IMG/VR virus record: IMGVR_UViG_3300036790_000374
Span: 1-26,809 of that record
Direction: 5' to 3' (one strand)
From: a virus
DNA: 26,809 bases
Positions 10,737-13,209 of this stretch are shown one piece after another. Each line of letters begins with the position of its first letter. Position 1 is the stretch's first letter. Below the pieces are notes generated by a model. That model searched no databases. It was not told where the DNA came from and saw only the letters and a list, made by a program, of their open reading frames with translations. Position numbers and translations under genes: made by a program.

Positions 10737-10749
10737 CTCCGAGGTCCGG

Positions 10750-13209
10750 ATGAAGCAACCACTTCAATTCGCACGGCGCTTCCGCGTAGCTCAGATAGCT
10801 ATGCGGAAGCCTCGGTTTCTGCTCACGGCAGAAGCGGATATCTCGCTCGATCAGCGGCAGTCGCTGTTGAGCGGCGCGCTACGCCTGCAGTTCGGCGTGG
10901 ATAGCAACGACTACCCCAACTTTTATCTTTACGAAACCTTCGATGACTACGTGATCGCGCGCGGTCCGGACAACGGACTCTTTCGCATCCCTTACACGAT
11001 GGATGGCGAGAACGTTGCTTTCGGTTCAGCGCAGGAAGTGACCACGGCCTATGTGCCGGTAGCGGAGGCGTGCGAATTTGAAGCGGCGGCCGAGGCCGAC
11101 GCGGTGGCTTCGCAGTCCGGGCGCTATCCCATCACCATCATCAGGGCCGGATGGGGCACGGGATCTGTCTCGGGAAAATCTGTCCCGCACTACTACACGC
11201 CGGAATTTGTGTCGTTGGTGGCGGAGGCCGCCAACGGCAGGCCCTTCGGGCGCAAGCATCCCGATCAAAAGGGGCCTGACCCAACCGGCGCAACGCAGCC
11301 CGAGCGCATTGCCGGCTGGCTCGACGGCACCAGCGTCGCCGAGGGCAAGGCTAACGGCTATGTGAATCTCTTTTCCGCGGAGAGCGATCTGCGCTCGAAG
11401 CTCGACCAGGCGCGCGACTCCAAGCGGCTCAGCTTGTTTGGCGTGTCGATGCTCGCCCTTGTCGGCTATAAGCCGGGCGTCGTCGAGGGGAAGCAATGCC
11501 TGGTCGCGGAAAGCTTGGGCGAGTTTTATTCCGTGGATCTCTGCGCACGCGCCGGCGCCGGCGGCGAATTCCTGACCGCGGCGAGTTTTGCAGCCAACAG
11601 CATATCTGCCGCGCAGCTCAAGGCGGTCAAACCCGAAACCACCCCGATTGCGCCAAGCAAGAAGGACAACAACGGCGGCATGGCAATTGCTGCTGAAGGA
11701 GCCACAATGAAGAAGTCCATCCTTCAAATGCTCGAAGCGCTTCGGTTGAGGAATGCCGGACGCTGTGCCGAGCTGAGTTTGAAGTTCGCCAATGTCGCCG
11801 AGGCGGATTATCCGACCTTTTTGGAAACCGTGACCACGGCGCTCACCGAGGTTCCTGCCGCGGTTATTCCGCCCGTTGTCACCGCCGAGGCCGCGCAAGC
11901 GTTGCTTGCCGAAACACAGCGCCTGCAGTCGCGCAACCGCATAGCTGTCAAGCTGGTGGACTCCAGGCTGCCCGAGCCTGCGAAGAAGCTTGTCAACACA
12001 CACCTGGAGAGCGCGCTCACCTCCGAGGCTAACCTGTCCGATGCCGCGATCGATGCGGAGATCGTCTCTGTGCGCGAAGCCTTTGCGGCATTCAACAACA
12101 CGGGGCGCATCGCCGGCGCAACCGGTGTTTCGCTGGACTCCGCTGACAAGATGTCCCTGGCGATGGAAGCAGCAATCGGCGTCAAGGCTGCGGCAGGCAA
12201 GGGGGTTCCGGCCTTCCGCTCGCTTCGCGAGGCCTACACCACCATCACGGGCGACTGGAATTTGGATAGGCTGCGCGGCGGCGGCTGCTTCACCGGCCAT
12301 GCGCTCACCTCGGAAGCCGTCGTAACAGGAGACTTCCCCAACATCCTGCTGAACTCGATGACCAAGCGGCTGCTGCAGGACTGGGCGGAGCTGGCGCTCG
12401 ATGGTCTCGCGAACCTGTACACTTCGGTGCCCATCAGCGATTACAAGCAGCAAGATCGGGTGCGCGAGGGTTTCTTTCCTGAAATCTCGTCTGTGGCGGA
12501 AGCCGGCACTTACCAGGAGATCGCCTACCCCACGGATGAACACATCACTTATACGATGGCCAAGCGGGGCAACCTGTTGACCATCTCGGAAGAGACCATC
12601 CGCAATGACGATCTCGGCGCCATCGCCCGTTTCCCCGGACGCCTGGCCCGCGCCGCCCGCTGGACGCTGAAGAATTACATCACGACGTTCTTCACCGGCA
12701 ACCCCAACTACACCGGCGACTCGGTGGCGTGGTTCAACAGCGCGCATGGCAACCTGAGCACTGTGGCGCTGAGCCAGGACTCGCTGATCGCCGATGAGGT
12801 GGCGCTGCTGACCCAGACGGAGAAGGACTCCGGCGAACCGCTGGGTCTGCCTCTCACCTGGCTCATGGTGCCCCCGGCCCTGGCCGCAACTGCTCGCCAG
12901 ATCAACCAGACCAACACCGCCGGCTCGAACGCTTTCTTCCAGCGCTTTGGGGTAAACAACGAGCGGATATTCGTCAACGAAAAGCTGACCGACGTGACCG
13001 ACTACTACTACGGCACCGATCAGAACAACGCACCCTTCCTGGAGATGGGCTTCCTCGACGGCATCGAGAACCCGCAAATCTTCCTCGCCAACCAGCCCAC
13101 CATCGGCACCCAGTTCACCGCCGATGAGCTGCAGTACAAGGTGAAGTTCCCGTTCGCGGGCGCGATCATCGACTTCCGCGGCGTCGGCAAGCACGTCGTA
13201 GCGGGTTAG
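10750..13209 (+). CDS. prohead protease - scaffold - major capsid fusion protein
   Basis: The product has 819 residues from the ATG at 10750 with GAGGT just before it; an in-frame ATG at 10672 lies inside the preceding gene. Residues about 125-275 resemble Mu gpI-type prohead proteases: K-H170-P, R-I-A-G-W-L-D-G (187-193), and L-S228-L-F-G-V-S233-M (likely catalytic Ser), then E-F-Y-S-V-D-L. A linker rich in Ala, Lys and Asn leads to a helical scaffold-like part (about 320-480) and a capsid part (about 480-819) with HK97-fold features such as F-P-N-I-L-L-N-S-M, a long L-Y-T-S-V-P region and the end segment A-I-I-D-F-R-G-V-G-K-H. Protease/capsid fusions are known in Mu-like prophages. Proteolysis should free the mature shell protein. 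Confidence 0.88.
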   Translation: MKQPLQFARRFRVAQIAMRKPRFLLTAEADISLDQRQSLLSGALRLQFGVDSNDYPNFYLYETFDDYVIARGPDNGLFRIPYTMDGENVAFGSAQEVTTAYVPVAEACEFEAAAEADAVASQSGRYPITIIRAGWGTGSVSGKSVPHYYTPEFVSLVAEAANGRPFGRKHPDQKGPDPTGATQPERIAGWLDGTSVAEGKANGYVNLFSAESDLRSKLDQARDSKRLSLFGVSMLALVGYKPGVVEGKQCLVAESLGEFYSVDLCARAGAGGEFLTAASFAANSISAAQLKAVKPETTPIAPSKKDNNGGMAIAAEGATMKKSILQMLEALRLRNAGRCAELSLKFANVAEADYPTFLETVTTALTEVPAAVIPPVVTAEAAQALLAETQRLQSRNRIAVKLVDSRLPEPAKKLVNTHLESALTSEANLSDAAIDAEIVSVREAFAAFNNTGRIAGATGVSLDSADKMSLAMEAAIGVKAAAGKGVPAFRSLREAYTTITGDWNLDRLRGGGCFTGHALTSEAVVTGDFPNILLNSMTKRLLQDWAELALDGLANLYTSVPISDYKQQDRVREGFFPEISSVAEAGTYQEIAYPTDEHITYTMAKRGNLLTISEETIRNDDLGAIARFPGRLARAARWTLKNYITTFFTGNPNYTGDSVAWFNSAHGNLSTVALSQDSLIADEVALLTQTEKDSGEPLGLPLTWLMVPPALAATARQINQTNTAGSNAFFQRFGVNNERIFVNEKLTDVTDYYYGTDQNNAPFLEMGFLDGIENPQIFLANQPTIGTQFTADELQYKVKFPFAGAIIDFRGVGKHVVAG
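11696..11709 (+). promoter_or_regulatory. internal ribosome-binding site and ATG within the capsid fusion gene
   Basis: AAGGAG at 11696-11701 is followed after five bases by an in-frame ATG at 11707 (M320 of the fusion). This sits exactly between the protease part and the scaffold/capsid part. Initiation here would make a separate 500-residue scaffold-capsid protein ending at 13209, comparable in arrangement to the nested scaffold genes of lambda-like phages. The motif is seen directly; its use is inferred. Confidence 0.55.

What the first reader, a model, noticed from the sequence alone, without database searches (positions are those of the whole stretch)
11696..13209. Internal start that could make capsid protein separately from the protease fusion
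A protease fused one-to-one to the shell protein would give far more protease than a capsid needs. AAGGAG with a five-base spacer and ATG at 11707 lies exactly at the junction between protease and scaffold parts and keeps the frame. This would give a long (819) and a short (500) product, with the short one in excess, and solves the stoichiometry problem.
Basis: partly seen in the sequence, partly recalled or inferred. Interest (0 to 1): 0.55.

Follow-up and report, generated by a model that had tools for sequence, protein, structure and literature searches.

The report
Second start inside protease-capsid fusion gene
A phage gene that joins a protease to the virus shell protein carries a second ribosome-binding site and start codon at the joint, kept in nearly all relatives, so one gene very probably makes both a protease-shell fusion and a separate shell protein.

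Summary
In detail: AAGGAG (11696-11701), five bases, in-frame ATG at 11707, between an N-terminal protease and an all-helical scaffold joined to an HK97-fold capsid protein (819-aa and 500-aa readings). In this one sequence the site could be chance. In relatives it is not: 53 of 54 distinct fusion genes have the Met at the aligned position, the 54th has it two codons earlier, and all 54 have a Shine-Dalgarno-like pairing of -6 kcal/mol or better, against 81 of 644 other in-frame ATGs. The linker has 16 lengths, always in frame. Synonymous codon choice is most constrained just upstream of this ATG. Fusions of the same capsid family to other proteases mostly carry such a site too (15/15, 35/43, 45/55 representatives). 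Faecalibacterium phage FP_Epona has the two parts as separate genes split at this joint. Lambda C/Nu3 and Mu I/Z are the known precedents, for scaffold alone. That the short product is in excess was not tested; pairing strength does not predict it. Verdict: an internal start, very probably used; a new variant of a known nested-start design.

The parts
10741..10744 (+). GAGG, likely ribosome-binding site of the long (fusion) form
   Evidence: pairing -7.1 kcal/mol; same place in L001
10750..13209 (+). long form: protease-scaffold-major capsid fusion, 819 aa
   Evidence: ORF; one open frame in all 67 related loci
11044..11568 (+). protease fold like T4 gp21 / herpesvirus assemblin; conserved H170 and S233 as likely catalytic residues
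   Evidence: AlphaFold2 model pLDDT 82; Foldseek top hit T4 gp21 E 1.2e-3; VIA Z 10.9 over 150 residues; H149/S212 of A5 invariant
11569..11706 (+). variable linker that carries the internal ribosome-binding site
   Evidence: 16 distinct lengths, 34-59 residues, in 53 sequences, frame kept; peak of synonymous constraint
11696..11701 (+). AAGGAG, internal Shine-Dalgarno sequence
   Evidence: GGA is 56 of 61 Gly codons in the six codons before the ATG against 508 of 3738 elsewhere
11707..11709 (+). internal start codon ATG (M320 of the long form)
   Evidence: aligned ATG in 53 of 54; two codons earlier in L039
11707..13209 (+). short form: scaffold-major capsid precursor, 500 aa (inferred product)
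   Evidence: stand-alone 530-aa counterpart gp39 in FP_Epona
11710..12090 (+). all-helical scaffold (delta-like) domain
   Evidence: helices 2-15, 17-29, 32-48, 60-86, 90-106, 112-128 of the short-form model
12316..13185 (+). HK97-fold major capsid domain, Pfam PF25209 Phage_capsid_4
   Evidence: Pfam E 2.4e-28; Foldseek HK97 and relatives E 1e-8

Best explanation
The gene at 10750-13209 is a two-start gene. Ribosomes that start at 10750 make an 819-aa protease-scaffold-capsid fusion; ribosomes that start independently at 11707, from the AAGGAG at the joint, make a 500-aa scaffold-capsid precursor of the same kind as HK97 gp5. Both assemble through their shared scaffold and capsid domains, so a minority of fusion chains carries the protease into the procapsid, where it removes the scaffold from all chains. 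Shown here: both readings exist, the start site is conserved and under selection, the domains are a gp21-like protease fold, a helical scaffold and an HK97-fold capsid protein, and an unfused relative has the two parts as separate genes cut at this joint. Inferred: that the site initiates in vivo, that the short form is the more abundant one, and that the fusion brings the protease into the shell.
For: Met at the aligned position in 53 of 54 and an SD-like pairing of -6 or better in 54 of 54 distinct genes, against 81 of 644 other in-frame ATGs; the Met is the only column conserved in at least 50 sequences between residues 292 and 328. Linker of 16 lengths, always in frame, so the fusion reading is kept as well. 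The 12 five-codon windows with most excess synonymous identity, of 760, all start at residues 305-317; GGA in 33 of 37 Gly codons just upstream in the 80% representatives, against 13.6% elsewhere. In L060 and L062 the AGGAG is read in another codon phase. Same capsid family fused to ClpP-type and S78-type proteases: site at the joint in 15/15, 35/43 and 45/55 representatives. FP_Epona gp38/gp39 are separate genes split at the joint with a strong RBS (-11.6) overlapping the protease stop. Lambda Nu3 and Mu Z, annotated internal starts in protease-scaffold genes, give -6.9 and -7.4 on the same scale.
Against: No protein or ribosome-profiling data. When upstream codons are redrawn synonymously, pairing energy is only mildly better than expected (Fisher p 7e-4 window family, 0.006 S1 family; 0.61 F10 and 0.49 PBb001 families), so much of the SD is carried by residue choice and in the ClpP-type family it could reflect protein conservation. 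8 of 43 S1-type and 10 of 55 PBb001-type representatives lack a clear site at the aligned position. In 9 of 54 family members another in-frame ATG pairs better.
Confidence: 0.87

Rival explanations
1. The site is a relic of two formerly separate genes (protease, then scaffold-capsid) that fused by loss of the stop codon, and it is no longer used; only the fusion is made and it cuts itself.
For: FP_Epona shows the separate-gene state, split at the joint; Blf4 and JustBecause also have separate genes, cut elsewhere.
Against: A relic would decay: Met and SD persist across relatives of 38-75% identity (best segment) whose linkers have 16 different lengths, and synonymous constraint peaks there.
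Confidence: 0.06
2. The short chain exists but arises by cleavage at the joint; the SD-like purines are only the codons of a Glu/Gly-rich flexible linker.
For: EGA, QE, EE and KE residues dominate before the Met; synonymous redraws give weak p values in two of four families.
Against: GGA bias, codon-phase shifts in L060 and L062 and the conserved Met, which a cleavage site or linker would not need.
Confidence: 0.05
3. Chance resemblance in a G-rich linker.
For: 13 of 644 other in-frame ATGs pair at -8 or better, so one such site per gene is not rare.
Against: Conservation in 54 of 54 genes and in most members of three further fusion families.
Confidence: 0.01

Closest known systems
Phage lambda C/Nu3 (nested scaffold start in the protease gene)
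   Same: In-frame internal start at the protease/scaffold joint gives a protease-scaffold fusion and free scaffold; annotated in NC_001416, pairing -6.9.
   Different: Lambda's capsid protein E is a separate gene; here scaffold and capsid protein are one chain, so the internal start makes the shell protein itself. The protease is of another family.
Phage Mu I/Z and P. aeruginosa Mu-like PaMx73 gene 27
   Same: Protease gene with internal start for the scaffold Z; a putative counterpart at Val 177 with ACGAGGA is described for PaMx73 (passages of PMC4378225).
   Different: The capsid protein T is separate. Profile comparison of protease and scaffold with the Mu I/Z family is not significant (best E 0.018), although that alignment ends at the two start Mets; the capsid domain shows a short match to Mu T (E 2e-4).
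ClpP-capsid fusions of F10/MD8-type and lambdoid phages (PHROG 133)
   Same: One gene for protease, scaffold and capsid protein; homologous capsid domain (E 2.8e-28); in-frame ATG with SD at the joint.
   Different: Protease of the ClpP family (Pfam E 4e-37). The MD8 paper describes the triple fusion and says nothing of an internal start (PMC8508860, section 2.5 read).
HK97 gp4/gp5 and FP_Epona gp38/gp39
   Same: The short product corresponds to the stand-alone scaffold(delta)-capsid precursor (FP_Epona; HK97 as told in PMC8508860).
   Different: There the protease is a separate gene; here it is also fused in frame.

Membership tests
Protease-capsid fusion genes with Phage_capsid_4 capsid domain | C-terminal Phage_capsid_4 (PF25209) HK97-fold domain | tested here: met
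   100.6 bits against cut-off 27; HK97-fold Foldseek hits
Protease-capsid fusion genes with Phage_capsid_4 capsid domain | N-terminal capsid maturation protease in the same frame | tested here: met
   by fold: T4 gp21, Z 10.9, 150 residues, E 1.2e-3; invariant His and Ser; activity not tested
Nested in-frame start genes (lambda C/Nu3, Mu I/Z design) | in-frame internal start with ribosome-binding site at the protease/scaffold boundary | tested here: met
Nested in-frame start genes (lambda C/Nu3, Mu I/Z design) | second protein actually made from the internal start | not testable with these tools
   needs protein or ribosome data
Mu I/Z gene family | sequence homology to Mu gene I/Z | tested here: inconclusive
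   hhalign best E 0.018, probability 3%; others 0.06-0.11
ClpP (S14) type protease-capsid fusions | CLP_protease domain at the N terminus | tested here: not met
   no Pfam family up to E 1 for window 10750-11706; the F10 and mEp460 N-terminal parts match CLP_protease

The most novel reading that the evidence does not exclude
Most protease-capsid fusion genes of the Phage_capsid_4 lineage are two-start genes: protease modules of at least three kinds (gp21-like, S78, ClpP-like) have been joined in front of the same scaffold-capsid module, and in most cases the capsid module kept or regained its own ribosome-binding site inside the fused frame. Many database entries called 'head maturation protease' would then hide the real, shorter capsid precursor.
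Probability: 0.65. Interest if true: 0.6.

Novelty: new variant of a known kind. Interest (0 to 1): 0.52.

Why it matters
A protease fused one-to-one to a shell protein raises a stoichiometry problem that the papers seen here on such fusions do not address. A conserved internal start gives a simple, testable answer, extends the lambda and Mu nested-start design from free scaffold to the capsid protein itself, and would change how the major capsid protein is annotated in many phages (its true N terminus and its abundant form). It also points to a joint at which different proteases have been exchanged while the start site was kept.

Tried and rejected
Host: genome contigs gave no full-length relative of the window's own type; the two closest capsid matches are Acidobacteria MAGs with only the capsid part, and the window's protease profile found nothing in those two genomes, so the host is only suggested. 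A conserved RNA hairpin upstream of the SD: windows at -40..-13 are more stable than most of the gene (22 of 33 in the top 10%), but RNAalifold finds no consensus pair and synonymous redraws give only Fisher p 0.04; not claimed. Start-region openness: the -15..+3 stretch is somewhat less paired at the junction than at random in-gene places (median 0.49 against 0.39, p 4e-4), overall folding energy not different (p 0.15). Sequence search of the protease part against solved structures: none up to E 10; the fold comparison did better. Homology to Mu I/Z: not significant. RNA family search and metagenome collections were not used. The ten paper searches found no statement of an internal start in a protease-capsid fusion; the library lacks most subscription papers, so this does not show that none exists.

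Full report
What is there. The window is a whole 26,809-base IMG/VR record. Gene 10750-13209 reads as 819 aa, with terminase, portal and head-morphogenesis genes upstream. AAGGAG lies at 11696-11701, five bases before an in-frame ATG at 11707. The part before the ATG has no Pfam family up to E 1, but its AlphaFold2 model (pLDDT 82) matches the T4 prohead protease gp21 best (Foldseek E 1.2e-3; VIA-align Z 10.9, 150 residues, rmsd 3.5), followed at Z 4-5.6 mostly by herpesvirus assemblins; H170 and S233 are invariant in a 40-sequence alignment. That these are the catalytic residues is inferred. The part after the ATG is modelled as six helices from residue 2 to 128 and then an HK97-like fold (pLDDT 80; Foldseek), with Pfam Phage_capsid_4. 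So the ATG sits at the first residue of the scaffold domain.

Conservation in the window's own family. Two searches of viral contigs gave L001, L002 and L004-L068, 67 loci. All keep one open frame through protease and capsid as far as the contigs reach. I dropped ten with identical DNA over the last 1,600 bases, two that repeat the contigs of L001 and L002, and two without the joint (L059, L064), leaving 53 plus the window. 53 of 54 have ATG at the aligned position; L039 has it two codons earlier. The pairing energy of the upstream 18 bases with the anti-SD is -6.0 or better in 54 of 54, against 81 of 644 other in-frame ATGs and 153 of 749 out-of-frame ATGs; the junction ATG is the best-pairing in-frame ATG (ties included) in 45 of 54. 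In a ten-sequence alignment that reaches 27% identity (cultured Microcystis phage Mae-JY22) M320 is the only invariant residue between F274 and L407; the linker before it has 16 different lengths in 53 sequences. In the Chloroflexi fusions L311 and L312 a GTG after AGAGGAGGAA (-12.0) is the best-pairing start listed, just after the protease part.

Is it selection on the DNA? Three tests. Synonymous identity among 33 representatives (under 80% identical) is highest of the whole gene in the codons just upstream of the ATG: the 12 top windows of 760 start at residues 305-317. Glycine codons in the six codons before the ATG are GGA in 56 of 61 cases (33 of 37 in representatives) against 13.6% elsewhere. 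Redrawing upstream codons synonymously and scoring pairing energy is a weaker test: Fisher p 7e-4 for the window family, 0.006 for the S1 family, not significant for the F10 and PBb001 families; control ATGs 0.997 (25 scored). I read this as an SD held by both residue choice and codon choice, with the second shown clearly only in the window's family and less so in the S1 family.

Other fusion families. The capsid domain is homologous to those of F10, S1 and PBb001 (hhalign E 2.8e-28, 1.5e-34, 3.2e-43), whose N-terminal parts differ: ClpP in F10 and mEp460, S78 in PBb001, no Pfam match up to E 0.01 for S1, Mae-JY22 and L311. Further loci were fetched (each search returning its best 75-80 loci; the S1 and PBb001 sets overlap in part). 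After removing duplicates and sequences without the joint, representatives under 90% identity have ATG or GTG at the aligned position with pairing of -5 or better in 15 of 15, 35 of 43 and 45 of 55. Of the eight S1-type exceptions L186 and L189 have an ATG at -6.4 ten codons on; of the ten PBb001-type exceptions L231 has one at -8.1 twenty codons on, L250 one at -5.5 two codons before and L234 one at -4.9 in place; the rest show none at -5 or better within 25 codons. Ten cultured fused phages were read singly: Mae-JY22, F10, mEp460, mEp043, S1, PBb001, RcDormio, MinM1, Nsp-JY21, yong2; all ten have an ATG with pairing of -5.6 to -10.0 at the end of the protease part. I chose that ATG by eye from the domain layout, and several of these genes have other in-frame starts that pair as well or better, so single cases are weak; the alignments carry the claim.

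The unfused state. In Faecalibacterium phage FP_Epona the protease (gp38, 176 aa) and the scaffold-capsid protein (gp39, 530 aa) are separate genes; they match positions 26-189 and 173-644 of PHROG 4523, so the cut is at the joint. gp39 starts after TAGGAGG, which overlaps the stop of gp38 (-11.6). The short form is thus a complete product in a relative. Blf4 and JustBecause have protease gene, a small gene between and capsid gene apart, cut elsewhere. The order of events (fusion by loss of the stop, or fission) was not tested.

How it probably works. Two independent starts on one message give a fusion and a capsid precursor that share scaffold and capsid domains; co-assembly brings a minority of proteases into the shell. 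The ratio is not shown: pairing is -7.1 for the long start and -8.0 for the internal one, and in lambda the long start pairs better than the Nu3 start, although Nu3 is the more abundant product (recalled, no call).

What is known. Lambda C/Nu3 and Mu I/Z are annotated nested starts for the scaffold alone. For P. aeruginosa Mu-like phages a putative one is described (PMC4378225, passages). The MD8 paper describes a protease-scaffold-capsid gene and proposes no second start (PMC8508860, section 2.5); the Paracoccus virome paper reports ClpP-capsid fusions in 17 of its Siphoviridae prophages (PMC6536676, passages). I saw no report of an internal start in such a fusion, within the limits of the library. 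Hence: new variant of a known kind.

Noticed in passing
window 11673-11695: GC-rich potential hairpin ending just before the SD; similar hairpins in many relatives, in the top 10% of in-gene stability in 22 of 33 representatives, but synonymous control only p 0.04 and no consensus pair.
   Followed up: partly
window 10813-11043: An extra N-terminal region before the gp21-like fold (helix plus strands), matched in the fold comparison mainly by designed proteins at Z 4-5; function unknown.
   Followed up: no
L309:5905-7071, L310:5797-7056: Acidobacteria MAG contigs with a close capsid domain (50-52% identical) but no scaffold or window-type protease attached; hint at the host phylum and at another way of cutting the module.
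   Followed up: partly
L182, L185, L217, L230 and other S1/PBb001-type loci: Fusions without a recognisable SD at the joint, some with A-rich upstream sequence; perhaps hosts that initiate without SD.
   Followed up: no
window 11026-13194 (minus strand): A 722-aa open frame antisense to most of the fusion gene; probably a by-product of codon composition.
   Followed up: no
L346:1800-1830 (FP_Epona): The protease stop codon TAG is part of the TAGGAGG ribosome-binding site of the capsid gene; relevant to how fused and unfused forms could interconvert.
   Followed up: no
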